A DNA stretch of 64,000 nt, taken from assembly GCA_014238155.1 (NCBI GenBank), contig JABABQ010000034.1:62001-126000 (forward strand). The letters are read 5' to 3'. The stretch is from Rhizobiaceae bacterium (lineage in GTDB: Bacteria > Pseudomonadota > Alphaproteobacteria > Rhizobiales > Rhizobiaceae). Below, piece by piece: positions 14,632 through 45,830 of this stretch. Made by a program: the position numbers and the translations under genes. Under the pieces are notes generated by a model. The model saw nothing but the letters and a program-made list of their open reading frames with translations, ran no database searches and had not been told where the DNA came from. Position 1 is the first letter of the stretch. Every line of letters starts with the position of its first letter.

Positions 14632-15909
14632 TTGAAACGCGATAGACGGATTATCGCGATTGCCGGTGCCGGCATTGCTGGCATGACAGCAGCACTGTTT
14701 CTTGAAAGGGCCGGTTTTCGGGTTTTGCTGTTTGAGAAATCGCCGAAACCCGCAACCACCGGCACCGGCATTCAAATTTCCCCCAATGCCTACAAAGTGC
14801 TGGCTGAACTTGGCCTGTCCCGATCACTGAACACAGTGGGTTTTGTGCCAAATTCGATTGACATCGGGTGCGGGTTGACCGGCGCGCCGCTGATCCGGTT
14901 CGATTTGGGCGAAACCTGTTTGCAACGTTACGGTGCGCCCTACACAACGATCCATCGCGTAGATCTGGCACATATTCTGCAAACCGCCTGCGAGGACCGG
15001 GAAGATATCGATATTCACCGCGGGTCACAAGTGGCCGACCTGGCAGCCCATGCAAATGGCCTGACATTGCTATGTGAGTCTCAACACCAAACCACCGAGG
15101 AATATGTCGTATCGGCCGTCATCGGTGCCGATGGTGCCTGGTCGACATTGCGCAAATACGTCCATGACAGTGAGACGCCTCAGTTTACCGGCCAGATCGC
15201 CTGGCGTGCGCTGATCGACATTGAATCCACAAACCCTGCATTGTCGCGCACCTCAACGGGCTTGTGGCTTGGGCCAAACACACACCTGGTCCACTACCCG
15301 GTTCGGGCAGGAAATCTGCTCAATGTGGTTGCCATCACCCCCTGGACAAAAGACTACGCGCCACGAAGGGGTTGGTTGACGCAATCAGCGCTAGATGACC
15401 GAACATCTGTGTTCGAAGATTGGCTACCGCATTTGCACGAACTGGTTGGCACAAGAGCCGATTGGGGGGGCTGGCCTATATTTGCGTCCACCAAGGCCGG
15501 TAAATTTGCCAATGGTCCGCTTTGCCTGATTGGCGACGCAGCGCACGCGATGGTACCATATGCGGCTCAAGGTGGCGCCTGCGCCATCGAAGACGCCTAT
15601 GTTCTGGCGTCTCAATGCAATGGATCAGGCGATGACCTCGCCGCTGCGTTTGACCAGTTTGAAAAAAGTCGCAGGCCGCGGGTTCAAAAAATCATGCGGT
15701 TGAGTGACAACAATCGACGCATTTATCACATGAAACCGCCCTACAGACAGTTTCGCGATATGATCATGAACCTCTCGCCGCAGACCGGTATACAAAAGCG
15801 CATGGACTGGATGTATGGCTGGGAGCCCGTTCCCCAACAGGTCGCTTCACCGTCCGGCACCCCACTGGTTAACCGGATCAGCAGACTTTGGCGCAGTTCA
15901 GACACCTAA
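14632..15909 (+). CDS. FAD-dependent aromatic-type monooxygenase (UbiH/NahG family)
   Basis: 425-residue group A flavoprotein monooxygenase. The FAD-binding GAGIAGMTAALFLERAGF (N-terminus), the FAD/NADPH motif IGADGAWSTLR (about residue 165) and the second FAD motif CLIGDAAHAMVPYAAQGG (about 300) are all complete. Salicylate hydroxylase and 6-hydroxynicotinate 3-monooxygenase are relatives; substrate not determined. Starts with TTG (no in-frame ATG until residue 18, inside the dinucleotide fold). A hairpin terminator follows before the convergent aap operon. Confidence 0.88.
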   Translation: MKRDRRIIAIAGAGIAGMTAALFLERAGFRVLLFEKSPKPATTGTGIQISPNAYKVLAELGLSRSLNTVGFVPNSIDIGCGLTGAPLIRFDLGETCLQRYGAPYTTIHRVDLAHILQTACEDREDIDIHRGSQVADLAAHANGLTLLCESQHQTTEEYVVSAVIGADGAWSTLRKYVHDSETPQFTGQIAWRALIDIESTNPALSRTSTGLWLGPNTHLVHYPVRAGNLLNVVAITPWTKDYAPRRGWLTQSALDDRTSVFEDWLPHLHELVGTRADWGGWPIFASTKAGKFANGPLCLIGDAAHAMVPYAAQGGACAIEDAYVLASQCNGSGDDLAAAFDQFEKSRRPRVQKIMRLSDNNRRIYHMKPPYRQFRDMIMNLSPQTGIQKRMDWMYGWEPVPQQVASPSGTPLVNRISRLWRSSDT

Positions 15910-21972: not shown

Positions 21973-22773
21973 TCAACCGGCGTGGCGCCTGCGGTGGGGT
22001 ATCCAGCTTTTGGATAGTTTGAACATTGTGCCTCGCTGCGCCAACCAGCGAGCTGCAAGCAGGGCAAACCCTGTTCCGAACATCAGACCAGCCAGCGCAT
22101 CGGATGGATAATGGGCATCGACCACGACTCTGCTCAACCCACCCAATAGGCCAAATACCAACCACAACACCCAATATCTGGGATACAGCAGGATCAACGC
22201 CATACAAAATGCACCAGAAGTTGTTGAGTGCCCTGAAGGGAAACTGGCAAAGGTTGATTCGAATGCACCGTAATTGAAATAGTGAGGGCCAAACTCCTCC
22301 AACAAGCGCGGTCGAGCGCGCCCTATCGTATTTTTTATGAAATTGGCTGCAATGCCGGACAGCGCCACAGTGAAAAAAATGAAGTTGACGTCAGCATATA
22401 AGTCGGCGCGTTTGAGCCGAGCGCGCCTTGGTAACTGAGACCAGGGGCTGATCGACAAACAGAGCCCAAATATTGCCGTGATCACCAGGATCCATCCACT
22501 GGTTCCGGTCAGCGTGATCAGTTCAAACACGGTTACGGTAAAGCTGTCGGAAGGAATTTCTTGCCGTTTCCATCGCACCAAATCGGCGTCAAGAAGCAGA
22601 AACAGCCACGCAATAGCGACAGTCAAAACCAAAATCCAAATCCAAAATCTGCTTTTTGACGGCAACAGACCTTGATTGACACCAGCCCGTCTGGGCCTGA
22701 AACTGCGTTGCCAGGCACCGACAAACGTGTCGCGGCTGCGCTGTAGGGCATTTTTGTTATTAGACCGGTTCAT
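21973..22773 (-). CDS. PAP2 family phosphatase (membrane)
   Basis: Integral membrane acid phosphatase / phosphatidate- or undecaprenyl-phosphatase type. All three PAP2 motifs are present: KNTIGRARP, FPSGHSTTSG and SRVVVDAHYPSD, with six hydrophobic helices. An N-terminal basic region of about 35 residues precedes the first helix. I use the ATG at 22773; the frame is open to a TTG at 22860, which would overlap the PAS gene by 26 bases. Substrate is unknown. Its stop lies two bases from that of metC (convergent). Confidence 0.87.
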   Translation of the reverse strand: MNRSNNKNALQRSRDTFVGAWQRSFRPRRAGVNQGLLPSKSRFWIWILVLTVAIAWLFLLLDADLVRWKRQEIPSDSFTVTVFELITLTGTSGWILVITAIFGLCLSISPWSQLPRRARLKRADLYADVNFIFFTVALSGIAANFIKNTIGRARPRLLEEFGPHYFNYGAFESTFASFPSGHSTTSGAFCMALILLYPRYWVLWLVFGLLGGLSRVVVDAHYPSDALAGLMFGTGFALLAARWLAQRGTMFKLSKSWIPHRRRHAG

Positions 22774-22834
22774 GCCCCACTGGAAATGCTCGACGGAAAT
22801 ATATTGAGGGGTGTAGTCGGGCAGTGGAGAAACG

Positions 22835-23599
22835 TCAATCAACTCGCCCGATTGGCTCAAAATCGACCCCGTCGACGCCCAGCAACAATTCCCGGGAAAT
22901 GTCTGTCATTGTCACGATCGCTCCTGCCAAAGTTCCAGCTTCATCGAAATGCGGTTGCATGCGGCATTTCATATAGGTTGGCGTATCAGAACCGGATTCA
23001 TCCAGCAGATGAGCATACTCAACAACATCACCGCTGAAGCAACGGTGAAAGAACGCTTTTGCCCGGCCATTAAATCTGTCATCACCGATGACTTCAGCAA
23101 CGTGCTGGCCGCCTATATCACTTGGACTGCAGCCATAATTGGCGGCATTGGATCGCGATGTGTATTGGTACCGATGTTCCAGATCAATCAATGATATTCG
23201 GTTTGCAGAATTATTTATCAGCGCCGAAACGTCACAATATTGCGGGATGGCTTGGACCAGCGATTCAGGTAACATGTATTCCCGCAGCAATTGTGCGATT
23301 ATCGCCACATCTGCCTTACGGGACAAAGAGTTACCCCGTTGATCCAGATCACCAAGAAAAAACACCAGATGTTTGTAGGCTTCCTGGCGGTCGCTGGCGC
23401 GATATTTCTTCAATGCAACCAGCAATTTTTGCAATTGATGATCGAGAAACTGAATTGCATCAATTTCGCGATCTGCTTCGATTTCAACACGCAATTGATC
23501 ATCAATTGAATTGTAATGACTGATCAACATGTCCAGTTTTGTCGCCGAATTGCTTCTTGATTTATTTAGCAGCAATGGCTCAATGACTGGACGGTTCAA
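22835..23599 (-). CDS. PAS domain protein coupled to the LuxR-type gene
   Basis: 254 residues. The N-terminal half is helical and of unknown family (SATKLDMLISHYNSIDDQLR); the C-terminal half is a PAS domain (ISLIDLEHRYQYTSRSNAANYGCSPSDIGGQHVAEVIGD, ending AGAIVTMTDISRELLLGV; strings given in part). No histidine kinase, GGDEF or HTH follows, so output must be by protein contact. Its ATG overlaps the stop of the luxR-type gene by four bases, implying translational coupling and a shared function. Confidence 0.7.
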   Translation of the reverse strand: MNRPVIEPLLLNKSRSNSATKLDMLISHYNSIDDQLRVEIEADREIDAIQFLDHQLQKLLVALKKYRASDRQEAYKHLVFFLGDLDQRGNSLSRKADVAIIAQLLREYMLPESLVQAIPQYCDVSALINNSANRISLIDLEHRYQYTSRSNAANYGCSPSDIGGQHVAEVIGDDRFNGRAKAFFHRCFSGDVVEYAHLLDESGSDTPTYMKCRMQPHFDEAGTLAGAIVTMTDISRELLLGVDGVDFEPIGRVD

Positions 23600-24396
23600 T
23601 GGGCAACTTCTTTGTGAAATATGATTCCGTCGGAAAGGTGTGCTCCGGATGGAATTTCACCAAGTATTACCGAGCGATACACAGTCGCCGCACGGTTCGA
23701 AGTTCCCAGGCGTTTTGCTGCCGATTCAAATAGCAAGCGTACCGCCATGGAGCTTAGTTCAAGATGTTGGCCAATCTCTTCATCACACAGACCTTCACAG
23801 GCCAGCAGCACGGTGTCTCTTTGTGTCTTGGTGAGCACCTTCTTTTCGAAGAGTTTGGATACATCAGGAAAACGCGCCACGAACGCGGCAACGAAATGTG
23901 AACAGGCATCACTAACCAAGGTGCGTACCGCTCCGGTAAATGATGATCCGCCCAATCCAACAGTGATCAACGAGAGCCCACTGCCGATCATGATCGGAAC
24001 AATGGCGATATTTTGATGACCGGTTTTTTCCAGCTCCTTAAAGAAACGACGATCATTCAACCCTTTGTATTGTGACCGGTCGATCGATTCCAGGCTAAAC
24101 GGGCGTAACCGCTTAATCGCCTCGCGGGAAAACGGGCAACCGTCGGGGTATCCCGGGCCGGTTCGAAATTGCTGCATGGCTTCATGGTAGGCGGAATAAG
24201 GGCGCAGGATATTAGCCCGGTCTCCGACATCGCAAAATTTCACAGACAATAACTGGACGTCAATACGTTTCATGAACTGGGCAAATTCCCGACATGCCCC
24301 GCGCAAATCGATAGTGAACCCGATATTTGCTATTGCCTTTTGCAGATCCAGATTGAATTCGACGATCTCGCCCGGCTCGACAGATTTTTGATACAT
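23596..24396 (-). CDS. LuxR family transcriptional regulator (solo)
   Basis: 266 residues: an N-terminal autoinducer-binding-like region (about 15-175, ending VRTLVSDACSHFV) and a C-terminal GerE/LuxR HTH (LTKTQRDTVLLACEGLCDEE then IGQHLELSSMAVRLLFESAA). The HTH departs from the usual consensus (typically LTxREREVLxxxAxGxSNxEIA). No luxI gene is in the window. The first gene of a two-gene unit with the PAS protein. Ligand unknown; the fold of the N-terminal region is inferred from layout. Confidence 0.72.
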   Translation of the reverse strand: MYQKSVEPGEIVEFNLDLQKAIANIGFTIDLRGACREFAQFMKRIDVQLLSVKFCDVGDRANILRPYSAYHEAMQQFRTGPGYPDGCPFSREAIKRLRPFSLESIDRSQYKGLNDRRFFKELEKTGHQNIAIVPIMIGSGLSLITVGLGGSSFTGAVRTLVSDACSHFVAAFVARFPDVSKLFEKKVLTKTQRDTVLLACEGLCDEEIGQHLELSSMAVRLLFESAAKRLGTSNRAATVYRSVILGEIPSGAHLSDGIIFHKEVAH

Positions 24397-24524: not shown

Positions 24525-24579
24525 TTATTGGCGATCCCTGGAGGATTCTAACCTCCGACCTACTGCTTAGAAGGCAGTT
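24525..24579 (-). repeat. Partial tRNA-Arg copy (attR-like direct repeat)
   Basis: 55 bases identical to 26306-26360 except T for G at 24549, within the T-loop. It covers the 3' portion of the tRNA from the anticodon arm to CCA and six bases beyond. It cannot be a functional tRNA because the 5' half is absent. Confidence 0.9.
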
Positions 24580-24731
24580 CCTTGTTCTCGGCATGAAAAA
24601 CACCTTCCTTCATCAAATGAAAAGTGTTCATCAAACCGGGGGAACTCCAGGCCAATACTGGGCTTGCAAAGAGAAATGTGAGTTTGTCCAATGCTGAACG
24701 CGGCGACAGCAATCGCTTGAGACCAGGCGGA

Positions 24732-24983
24732 CTATTTGGATATTTTTTTGAACCGAAATGGAGCACCAGGTATCTTGCGTAATGTCTGAGGTGGTTCCCC
24801 CATCATATAATGATTCCATTGGCAGACCTGAACTGCCCAGGCCTCACCTTTGCTTTTTGCAAGCATAGATCTTAAGCAATTTTTGTACGGGGTGAAATAG
24901 GCAAGGCTAATTACCACGACAGCCGCGCTTACGCCCATTCCCATCACTACTATTGAGGCAACTGTAAATTTGTTGAGTACCAT
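24732..24983 (-). CDS. Small membrane/exported protein of unknown function
   Basis: 83 residues with one hydrophobic segment (about residues 6-30, TVASIVVMGMGVSAAVVVIS) and a short polar C-terminus with two cysteines. GGAGG lies ten bases before the ATG, a good ribosome-binding site. I recognise no family. It sits inside the repeat-bounded element, in the same direction as the secreted-protein gene at 25144-25539, and may be cargo. Confidence 0.5.
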   Translation of the reverse strand: MVLNKFTVASIVVMGMGVSAAVVVISLAYFTPYKNCLRSMLAKSKGEAWAVQVCQWNHYMMGEPPQTLRKIPGAPFRFKKISK

Positions 24984-25143
24984 AATCTTTCACCCTCCAA
25001 ATCTGACTCGCGTTCCATGACGACTGCTAAATGTTTCTGGATACGAAGCAGGAGGAGACATGAGAGGATGCTCCAGAATCTCCACTAGCTTTCGCGTCTG
25101 GATAATCCGGGAAGGGCCTGCAAGCCCCTCCCTGATTGTCCAG

Positions 25144-25539
25144 TTAGCGCCGCTTAACGGTCACAGTCCGCCGAGGCTTCGACGGTGCTAGTGCAACGTG
25201 GTTTAAGCATGCCTGGGCAATGGCAGAACAGCTGTAGTTCTGTTCGATACCATCCTTGCTACAGCGGATTTGTTTACTCTGAGCAGTAGTCCAGTCTGCA
25301 TAACGGCTGCTCAGGGAACGGCGAACGTTTGCTTTCCAGTTTGACATGGCTGAGCGCATGGCTTGCCGCTTATTGTCACGGACCGCAACGCCCTGAAATA
25401 AGCGGCGGGGGCATATTCTCCCAAGCGAAATTGCAGGTTGCTTATAGAATGCGGCAAACTTTACTGTCTGAGCTGAACTCTGACTGGTTGCCATCAAAAC
25501 ACCGACAGCAATTAACGTGAATGTAGTTTTCCTAAACAT
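25144..25539 (-). CDS. Small secreted protein of unknown function
   Basis: About 131 residues. Signal peptide MFRKTTFTLIAVGVLMATSQ with cleavage likely after SSA. The mature part has a W...YADW...IRC...C...C layout (NWKANVRRSL, SSRYADWTTAQSKQIRCSKD, SCSAIAQACL) seen in short Rhizobiales secreted proteins without known role, followed by a basic tail. Start at 25539 has GGGA nine bases upstream. A GGGAGGGGC/GCCCTTCCC inverted repeat (25109-25132) follows the stop but lacks a T-tract. Inside the mini-element. Confidence 0.6.
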   Translation of the reverse strand: MFRKTTFTLIAVGVLMATSQSSAQTVKFAAFYKQPAISLGRICPRRLFQGVAVRDNKRQAMRSAMSNWKANVRRSLSSRYADWTTAQSKQIRCSKDGIEQNYSCSAIAQACLNHVALAPSKPRRTVTVKRR

Positions 25540-25831
25540 TGTATTTCCCACTTATGATTGTCAGATGGGTTTCATCTGAGTGTGCATTGGCAATGATTTC
25601 AGTTGACTAGATTTAAGATGAAGAGGCCTTGAACGGCCCGTTCATTTTGAATTCATGTCAGTAAAGTGGTCATTGCAATCACAACCTTTGAAAAGGACAG
25701 AGCCATGTGGGAAAGCAATGCGTTACTGACTGCTGCTGCATTGGAAACCGGGGGCGTGGTCACGCTACAGAATTGCAGTTAATTTAAAGACGCGCCCCGA
25801 TGGTGGTGGATGGCGGGATGTTGATGAATTC

Positions 25832-26221
25832 ATGCCCTGCCAGTTCGCAGATCAGCACTTTGGTGGTTCGCGGTGCTGGCTAACGTGCCTTTCATGCAGT
25901 CGCCGGTGCTCGATCACCTATGGGGGCAGTTTGTTCAGGTGCAGAAAATGTCACAATCCGGTCCACCATTCCCAAAATGATGATAACTTTGATCGGATTA
26001 TGAGCAAGGCCGACAAGCTTTGTAAGAAGGTCGGCGGAAGTGGGAACCATCGGGATTGGTTGCCCGAACGCCCGAGGGGAATGCATCGTCGAACATACGA
26101 TAAGCATCATCACCAGTTCTATCGATTGGTGGAAGCTAAAGAGCAGCAGTTGGAGGTCATGATGAAACAGATCAAATCAGATCGGGACGGATTGGTCGCA
26201 ATTCTCGGAAAGCTTGTGTGA
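25832..26221 (+). pseudogene. Zinc-ribbon hypothetical protein, N-terminus probably frameshifted
   Basis: 129 residues visible. Two Cys-x2-Cys pairs (CLSC, CRKC) in WLTCLSCSRRCSITYGGS and FRCRKCHNPVHHSQ form a zinc ribbon, followed by PERPRGMHRRTYDKH and a helical end. This matches, from memory, a family of alphaproteobacterial hypothetical proteins whose members start about 60 residues earlier. The reading frame is open back to 25730, and a separate ATG at 25705 with a good Shine-Dalgarno opens another frame (ALLTAAALETGG) that ends at 25782. A single frameshift near 25730-25780 would join them. Inside the mini-element. Confidence 0.5.
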
Positions 26222-26309
26222 ATCTGATCGTTTTGGAACCCCAATCTAATTATTCGTGCAATTGCCGAGCTTTTAAGGGGGATAAATAATTATTTTCATT
26301 CGATTTTAT

Positions 26310-26386
26310 TGGCGATCCCTGGAGGATTCGAACCTCCGACCTACTGCTTAGAAGGCAGTTGCTCTATCCAGCTGAGCTAAGGGACC
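26310..26386 (-). tRNA. tRNA-Arg (anticodon TCT)
   Basis: Minus-strand cloverleaf of 77 nt with encoded CCA: acceptor GGTCCCT/AGGGATC, D-arm AGCTCAGCTGGATAGAGC, anticodon loop CTTCTAA, T-arm GGAGGTTCGAATCCTCC. Its 3' part is supplied by the right-hand repeat of the mini-element. Confidence 0.95.
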
Positions 26387-44636: not shown

Positions 44637-45830
44637 ATGTCAAATCAAAATCCTCCCTTTAACGAAGCCGAGCTGGACACGACTGGTTTTGGGAAAATCC
44701 GTATTGAAATACACGAGGGGTTTGACGCGCTGGCCGACGATTGGCGGCGACTGGAATCCGAAGGTGTATGTTCGCTGTACCAGCGCCTCGACTGGGTGAG
44801 ACCATGGACCGAAAATGTCGCAGGCCCGGCGCGCATCAAGCCGCGACTGGCGATTGGACGGTTCGGCACTGAAGCCATGTTCATCTTGCCGTTGGGAATA
44901 CGTAAACGCGGACCCTTCAATGTGGCGACATGGTTGGGTGACAGTCACTCAAACTTTCACATGGGTATATTTTCCAAATCATTCATTCAAAACGCCCGGA
45001 GACAGGACGTTCGTGACGTGGTCGATTGTGTGGTCAAACTAATGGGCCGAGTGGACGTGCTTGAAATGTGTTGCCAGCCCGTTGTTTGGCAAGGTTTTAC
45101 CAATCCGTTCACATTTCTCGACTGGCAAGAATCCCACAACCACGCATATGCTCTCGACCTTGGTGCCGGTTTTGAGGATGCTATCAACCGTAAAAACGGC
45201 GCCCGCAAACGTAAGAAATACCGCTGGCAGCAGAACAAGTTACGGGATGTCGGCGGGGCTGAATTGCGCGTCGCCACCTCCGAAGCAGAAGTCGATGCCA
45301 TGCTTGATGTGTCATTTGCTCAAATGGCAGGACGATTCAACCGGGCCGGCATCTGGAATCGCTTCGAGGATACCGGCATTGAGACCTTTATCCGCCAGAT
45401 GGCCAAGTCTTCGCTGGATGATGTTGAACCGCAATTGCTTATTTATGGCCTGGAGATCGACGGGAAATTCAGCGCCACGCTTGCCGGCGGGGTGAACAAA
45501 GGACAGTTTTCCGGTTGTTTCATCTCGTTGACCGATGGCGACTATTCCCATATTTCGCCGGGCGAAATGATAATTCATCTCGTCATTCGCGATTGCTGTG
45601 AGCGTGGATTGAAGAATTTTGACCTTGGGCGTGGCGAAGAACGGTATAAATCGTCGTGGTGCGACACCACTGTCGCGATGTTTGAAACCAACATGGCGAT
45701 TTCCAACTGGGGCATCGGCTTTGCATTTTACGAGCGCGGAAAAATTGCCGCGAAACGGTTGGTCCGTAACAATCAAAGTTTATGGAATTTGGCAAAGAGA
45801 GTCCGTGCTCGTCTGTATGGACGCATGTAG
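44637..45830 (+). CDS. FemAB/BioF2-like GNAT acyltransferase
   Basis: 397 residues. The BioF2-like/GNAT_6 (PF13480) fold is visible in RKNGARKRKKYRWQQNKLRD, ISPGEMIIHLVIRDCCERGL, FDLGRGEERYKSSW and the late FERKx-like tail. Such proteins transfer acyl groups to exopolysaccharide or cellulose intermediates. It starts without a clear Shine-Dalgarno (ATCTTTTTTATG). Convergent with the Wzz-like gene. Substrate unknown, family fairly secure. Confidence 0.82.
   Translation: MSNQNPPFNEAELDTTGFGKIRIEIHEGFDALADDWRRLESEGVCSLYQRLDWVRPWTENVAGPARIKPRLAIGRFGTEAMFILPLGIRKRGPFNVATWLGDSHSNFHMGIFSKSFIQNARRQDVRDVVDCVVKLMGRVDVLEMCCQPVVWQGFTNPFTFLDWQESHNHAYALDLGAGFEDAINRKNGARKRKKYRWQQNKLRDVGGAELRVATSEAEVDAMLDVSFAQMAGRFNRAGIWNRFEDTGIETFIRQMAKSSLDDVEPQLLIYGLEIDGKFSATLAGGVNKGQFSGCFISLTDGDYSHISPGEMIIHLVIRDCCERGLKNFDLGRGEERYKSSWCDTTVAMFETNMAISNWGIGFAFYERGKIAAKRLVRNNQSLWNLAKRVRARLYGRM

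What the first reader, a model, noticed from the sequence alone, without database searches (positions are those of the whole stretch)
24525..26386. Repeat-bounded mini-element integrated in tRNA-Arg(TCT), without an integrase
55 bases spanning the tRNA 3' part (26306-26360) recur at 24525-24579 with one mismatch, in direct orientation, 1,781 bases apart; the left copy stops abruptly and lacks the tRNA 5' half. This is the footprint of integrase-mediated insertion at a tRNA 3' end. The lone mismatch lies in the T-loop of the displaced copy, as expected when it is no longer under selection. The element holds no integrase, so it is either a collapsed island or a small non-autonomous element mobilised in trans, which would be a less-studied class.
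Basis: partly seen in the sequence, partly recalled or inferred. Interest (0 to 1): 0.7.

Follow-up and report, generated by a model that had tools for sequence, protein, structure and literature searches.

The report
Collapsed genomic island at tRNA-Arg gene
The 1.8-kb segment is the wreck of a mobile DNA island that once inserted into an arginine tRNA gene and later lost its integrase, keeping both repeat ends and one recognisable island gene; it is a fairly ordinary relic, but that gene belongs to an unnamed family that often sits at the integrase-distal end of such islands.

Summary
In detail: 54 of 55 bases are shared between 24525-24579 and 26306-26360, and the right copy is the 3' part of an intact tRNA-Arg(TCT). 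The best reading is a decayed tRNA-targeted island, not a trans-mobilised mini-element. (1) The gene next to the tRNA (about 25778-26221) is the decayed end of an unnamed ~200-aa 'MGGxGSG' cysteine-rich family. Of 80 related loci, 13 have a tRNA within 500 bp, all 13 convergent (random control mean 0.7); 25 of 80 have an integrase upstream on the same strand. (2) In such islands, and beside a 49-bp copy of this same tRNA in a congener (G010), the integrase sits just inside the tRNA-distal repeat; in the window that spot holds a broken transposase fragment fused to the repeat. (3) The genome shows no other copy of the repeat or unit, and its only P4-type integrase arm domain is a truncated remnant at tRNA-Leu. 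(4) In 3 of 12 congeneric loci the left-hand PAP2-like gene lies directly against the tRNA. The type of the lost integrase and the order of events are inferred. Interest is modest; the unnamed island-end gene family is the more novel part.

The parts
24525..24579 (-). displaced 3' part of tRNA-Arg(TCT), distal att copy, one T-loop mismatch
   Evidence: a 49-nt match to the same tRNA part lies beside an integrase in G010 (L039)
24577..24649 (-). broken insertion-sequence fragment: IS outer end plus first codons of a transposase gene, fused to the left repeat with a 3-nt overlap (GTT)
   Evidence: the longer copy at G000:C70 matches HTH_Tnp_1 PF01527, E 2.3e-7; the C14 copy only weakly, E 0.16
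24732..24983 (-). ORF of 83 aa, no family; relative (54% aa) on contig C17 of the same genome
25144..25551 (-). ORF of 135 aa, N-terminus looks like a signal peptide (by eye, not tested); 81% aa identical relatives at G000:C56 and G003:C95; no family
25778..26221 (+). decayed MGGxGSG-family gene (cysteine-rich); N-terminal 64 profile positions not recognisable; stop 88 nt from the tRNA 3' end
26306..26360 (-). proximal att copy, within the tRNA gene
26310..26386 (-). intact tRNA-Arg(TCT), the target gene
22835..24396 (-). left flank: PAS-domain gene and LuxR-like regulator (weak family matches), same order after the PAP2-like gene in G010 (L108), hence taken as host DNA rather than part of the element
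21973..22860 (-). PAP2-like gene that directly neighbours tRNA-Arg(TCT) in G005, G008 and G011
   Evidence: the name PAP2 is recalled from the sequence and was tested in no call

Best explanation
A tyrosine-integrase island inserted by site-specific recombination into the 3' part of tRNA-Arg(TCT). The island brought its own copy of the tRNA 3' part, which keeps the tRNA whole at 26310-26386; the original 3' part was pushed to 24525-24579. The island most likely had a P4-type integrase just inside the distal (left) repeat and an MGGxGSG-family gene at the tRNA end. It then collapsed: an insertion sequence landed near the left end, a deletion joined the repeat to the interior of that insertion sequence and removed the integrase side, and the MGGxGSG gene decayed at its N-terminal part. 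What is left is a 1.78-kb scar that cannot move by its own means. Shown: both repeats, the intact tRNA, the broken IS fragment at the junction, the decayed island-end gene, the architecture in relatives. Inferred: that the lost part held a P4-type integrase, and the order of events.
For: Repeat geometry. The island-end gene: relatives lie convergent to a tRNA within 500 bp in 13 of 80 loci (control mean 0.70, maximum 5 in 1000 draws), with stop-to-tRNA spacing of 18-371 nt, 11 of the 13 at 85-144 nt, against 88 in the window. An integrase open frame lies upstream on the same strand in 25 of 80 loci, against 6 (upstream, opposite), 8 (downstream, same) and 3 (downstream, opposite). A 14-50-nt repeat of the tRNA end lies 63-138 nt before the integrase open frame (stop to stop) in 7 of the 10 loci that have such an integrase. 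G107 carries the full unit twice, 4,775 bp at 99.96%. G010 has a 49-nt copy of this same tRNA core with an Arm-DNA-bind_3 integrase start 170 nt inside. The PAP2-like gene lies directly at the tRNA in 3 of 12 congeneric loci, and no second copy of the tRNA 3' part was found in the 12 stretches read.
Against: No integrase remnant survives in the window, and no HTH_17, HTH_91 or HTH_36 island genes are recognisable there. The G010 contig ends inside the integrase, its intact tRNA was not found, and its assembly shows no MGGxGSG gene, so both halves were never seen together at tRNA-Arg(TCT). The nearest relative by sequence (G003) has different DNA on that side, so no exact empty site in a near relative was found. 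That the deletion ends right at the repeat is an unexplained coincidence. 67 of the 80 relatives of the island gene have no tRNA within 500 bp (many on short contigs), 42 of 80 showed no integrase with the seeds used, in a few loci the tRNA is on the integrase side (L121, L157, L188, L189), and relatives occur on plasmids.
Confidence: 0.82

Rival explanations
1. A small non-autonomous element that uses the two 55-bp repeats and an integrase supplied in trans.
For: Both att copies are preserved almost perfectly and flank a compact 1.7-kb segment, so an integrase with this specificity could in principle still excise it. 16 PF00589 matches over the cut-off exist in the genome and were not tested for this specificity.
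Against: No second copy found in the own genome or among the four best-scored places in each of 60 relatives; left end is a broken IS, not a terminus; only one P4-type integrase arm domain in the genome, truncated and at tRNA-Leu; the right-end gene is decayed.
Confidence: 0.07
2. A tandem duplication of the tRNA-Arg gene whose left copy lost its 5' half by a deletion into an insertion sequence; no integrase involved.
For: The left copy ends at a deletion-type junction with a 3-nt overlap rather than at a clean element end; two neighbouring tRNA-Arg genes (TCT and CCT) occur in G011 and G013; in G006 the NDUS4-like gene and tRNA-Pro beside this tRNA are duplicated, with 18 nt of the tRNA-Arg 5' end, so duplications do occur at this site.
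Against: No trace of the tRNA's 5' flank or neighbouring gene beside the left copy; the island-end gene at the right distance from the tRNA would be a coincidence; in G010 the same 3' part stands beside an integrase.
Confidence: 0.07
3. A variant of the best explanation: the deletion that removed the left part was itself an integrase error, a strand exchange between the distal att and a chance site in the transposase gene.
For: The junction lies at the edge of the att core (24577-24579), near where the integrase acts in G010.
Confidence: 0.15

Closest known systems
tRNA-targeted genomic islands as mapped by Islander (PMC4383910, passages seen)
   Same: intact tRNA gene plus displaced 3' fragment in the same orientation and on the correct side; fragment reaches the anticodon region
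   Different: no integrase and shorter than 2 kb, so Islander's filters would reject it
P4-type integrase islands with the MGGxGSG end gene (G107 L096/L097, Aquibium L113, Oceanibacterium L172 and others)
   Same: end gene convergent on the tRNA at nearly the same spacing; distal tRNA repeat
   Different: they keep the integrase just inside the distal repeat; the window has a broken IS there and only part of the end gene
tRNA gene fragments left by integration (PMC9897764, passages seen)
   Same: partial duplicate tRNA gene made by integration of an element
   Different: the six further archaeal examples named there flank about 9-23 kb; here only a 1.78-kb remnant is left

Membership tests
tRNA-targeted genomic island (Islander criteria) | intact tRNA plus displaced 3' fragment, same orientation, correct side | tested here: met
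tRNA-targeted genomic island (Islander criteria) | integrase gene inside | tested here: not met
tRNA-targeted genomic island (Islander criteria) | length 2-200 kb | tested here: not met
   1,781 bp
tRNA-targeted genomic island (general) | absent from the same site in relatives | tested here: met
   PAP2-like gene directly at the tRNA in 3 of 12 congeneric loci and no second copy of the tRNA 3' part in the 12 stretches; no exact empty site in the nearest relative
P4-type-integrase island with MGGxGSG end gene | end-gene family member convergent to the tRNA 3' end | tested here: met
   (decayed copy)
P4-type-integrase island with MGGxGSG end gene | P4-type integrase (Arm-DNA-bind_3) just inside the distal repeat | tested here: not met
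   absent in window; present at the same core in G010
P4-type-integrase island with MGGxGSG end gene | AlpA/HTH_17, HTH_91, HTH_36 genes | tested here: not met
   seen in some islands (10 proteins from 5 loci tested); not found in the window with the G107 and L111 proteins
non-autonomous element mobilised in trans | several copies with the same two ends | tested here: not met
   (one search scored the four best places per genome)
non-autonomous element mobilised in trans | excision by an integrase from elsewhere | not testable with these tools
   needs PCR or reads

The most novel reading that the evidence does not exclude
The MGGxGSG protein is a conserved working part, still unnamed, of a widespread class of small integrase islands (with relatives on plasmids), placed at the end opposite the integrase and often facing the target tRNA. 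Its position suggests a role tied to the att end (excision control, end protection or replication of the excised circle). The window shows that this gene can outlast the integrase as the last marker of a dead island.
Probability: 0.35. Interest if true: 0.5.

Novelty: new member of a known kind. Interest (0 to 1): 0.33.

Why it matters
It shows how a tRNA island can be recognised after its integrase is gone, below the limits of a standard island finder (no integrase, under 2 kb), and it points to an unnamed protein family that often marks the integrase-distal end of small islands, mostly in Proteobacteria. The intact G107 member had no match in Pfam, NCBIfam, PHROGs or PADLOC at the limits used, and its model no Foldseek match at E 0.001 in PDB or BFVD.

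Tried and rejected
Considered and dropped: the PAS/LuxR block (22835-24396) as part of the island (same order in G010). Core DNA of the genus: a pair of core copies was seen in 1 of 15 congeneric genomes (the own one, where 9 of 15 matched the pattern at all) and the end gene in 1 of 15, though the 135-aa gene has a relative in G003. A trans-acting resident P4-type integrase (the one arm domain found is truncated). Extra tRNA repeats left of 24525: none at 20-24.5 kb, elsewhere in the window only the tRNA-Pro gene and matches of 10-14 nt. Comparison of tRNA 3' flanks in 14 loci to tell which side is ancestral was not informative beyond TTAT shared by the two window copies and G010 (G024 has it too). 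HTH_91 in the own genome: no match, but none of the 14 control genomes rang either, so this shows nothing. The 83-aa and 135-aa ORFs gave no match or weak, sub-cut-off ones. Fold searches of the end-gene model gave no match at E 0.001. Eight paper searches listed nothing that describes the end-gene family by title or abstract start; only passages of two papers were read. One search searched its peptide motifs and found 0 papers.

Full report
Observation. The repeat is real and as described: 24525-24579 and 26306-26360, 54 of 55 identical, direct, 1,781 apart. The right copy is inside an intact tRNA-Arg(TCT), 26310-26386 minus strand. The lone mismatch (24549) falls in the T-loop. Four bases beyond the CCA (TTAT) are also shared. 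In the assembly (4.8 Mb, 77 contigs, 97.75% complete) the core occurs only here. Of 15 genomes of the genus 9 matched the core pattern and only this one has two matches.

The left junction. At C70 the piece continues into an open frame that matches HTH_Tnp_1 (PF01527, E 2.3e-7); the C14 frame matches it only at E 0.16. I read the window piece as the outer end and first codons of an insertion-sequence transposase gene. Its inner part is missing and the break is at the tRNA repeat, with GTT in common. This is a deletion scar, not a mobile-element terminus.

The gene next to the tRNA. The ORF 25832-26221 is the end of a longer, decayed gene: a profile of relatives aligns from position 65 of 205 at 25778, and a stop codon interrupts the frame further upstream. 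Eight of 247 family genomes hold a match, the own genome included, two of them weak and with stops. A scan of 84,980 species genomes with one peptide pattern gave 267 pattern matches, 209 confirmed relatives, 80 kept. All 80 were used. 66 of 80 read as proteins starting MGG with a length of 150-260 aa. In an alignment of 47 sequences two CxxC pairs and a GMH..T motif are invariant. The intact G107 member matches nothing in Pfam, NCBIfam, PHROGs or PADLOC at the limits used. Its AlphaFold model is confident (mean pLDDT 88.5, pTM 0.66) but has no Foldseek match at E 0.001 in PDB or BFVD. No phage record and 26 plasmid records hold relatives at E 1e-5.

Architecture in relatives. In 13 of 80 loci a tRNA lies within 500 bp, in all 13 downstream and convergent; random intervals gave 0.70 on average, at most 5 in 1000 draws. 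The gap from stop codon to tRNA end is 85-144 nt in 11 of the 13 (18 and 371 in the other two), 122 in G107, and 88 in the window. Integrase open frames were found upstream on the same strand in 25 loci, upstream opposite in 6, downstream in 8 (same strand) and 3 (opposite) of 80, in 38 loci in all; of 45 loci with at least 5 kb upstream, 24 have the first arrangement. Of 8 tRNA-adjacent loci with more than 3 kb upstream, 6 have it; L127 and L176 do not. Twenty loci with a convergent tRNA within 3 kb, L096 included, were searched for a direct repeat; ten have an upstream same-strand integrase, and in 7 of these ten (L096, L111, L113, L118, L172, L173, L181) a repeat of the tRNA end (46 and 50 nt in L113 and L172, 14-16 nt in the other five) lies 63-138 nt before the integrase open frame; L120, L167 and L170 showed none, and L155 showed a 14-nt match not at an integrase. 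G107 holds a 4,775-bp element of this build twice, 99.96% identical, once at tRNA-Ser(GGA) and once at a site that only resembles the core. Its genes include an Arm-DNA-bind_3/Phage_integrase protein, an HTH_17 protein, HTH_91 and a sub-cut-off HTH_36. Counter-examples: in L121, L157, L188 and L189 a tRNA is on the integrase side, in L155 the integrase lies between the gene and the tRNA, and 67 of 80 loci show no tRNA within 500 bp.

The same tRNA in a congener. G010:C341 carries 49 bases identical to the 26306-26354 part, and an integrase (Arm-DNA-bind_3, E 2.6e-20) starts 170 nt inside, running off the contig. The integrase thus lies at a partial tRNA copy on the same side as in the islands above; the window has the broken IS there. 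G010's intact tRNA and an MGGxGSG gene were not found, so this is supporting, not complete, evidence.

The site. Twelve congeneric tRNA-Arg(TCT) loci were read (12 of 14 congeners). The PAP2-like gene lies directly at the tRNA in G005, G008 and G011; about 1.2 kb, 0.5 kb and 6.9 kb separate them in G001, G009 and G013; G002 and G004 are rearranged; in G003, G006, G012 and G014 the gene was not found in the stretch read. G010 keeps the order PAP2-like, PAS, LuxR of the window, so I take these two genes as host DNA left of the insertion; after LuxR G010 has another gene, not the tRNA. G003, nearest by sequence, matches from the tRNA rightwards but not leftwards. In G006 18 nt of the tRNA 5' end recur about 6 kb away beside a second NDUS4-like gene: a different event on the other side of the tRNA.

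Mechanism. Most likely: integrase-driven insertion at the tRNA 3' part, then an IS insertion, a deletion that took the integrase end, and decay of the end gene. The insertion footprint and the decay are shown; the type of the lost integrase and the order are inferred. A resident helper is unlikely: the only Arm-DNA-bind_3 match in the genome is a truncated frame just after tRNA-Leu(CAG), with no PF00589 match there; the 16 PF00589 matches over the cut-off remain untested for this target.

Literature. Islander (PMC4383910, passages) describes the signature, with anticodon-centred sites in 2,083 of 3,919 islands, and rejects candidates without integrase or under 2 kb. PMC9897764 (passages) describes partial tRNA genes left by integration. 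Other papers were seen only in search listings.

Noticed in passing
G000:C5 around 45171-45422 (L192 1246-1965): A truncated P4-type integrase (arm domain, no catalytic match there) directly after tRNA-Leu(CAG): probably a second collapsed island in the same genome; no repeat of that tRNA longer than 11 nt within the 15 kb read.
   Followed up: partly
L096 5056-9830 and L097 4649-9423 (G107): A 4,775-bp integrase element present twice at 99.96% identity, once at tRNA-Ser(GGA), once at a non-tRNA site resembling the core: looks recently active.
   Followed up: partly
L040 9611-10050 and 15651-16073 (G006): The NDUS4-like gene and tRNA-Pro(TGG) next to tRNA-Arg occur twice about 6 kb apart, with 18 nt of the tRNA-Arg 5' end at 15514-15531.
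   Followed up: no
L048 8843-15720 (G013): About 6.9 kb of other genes lies between tRNA-Arg(TCT) and the PAP2-like gene, with no integrase found by the seeds used: the site may be an insertion hotspot.
   Followed up: no
window 25144-25551: The 135-aa gene has an 81% identical relative on contig C56 of the same genome; the DNA match extends beyond the gene on both sides (25090-25656).
   Followed up: no
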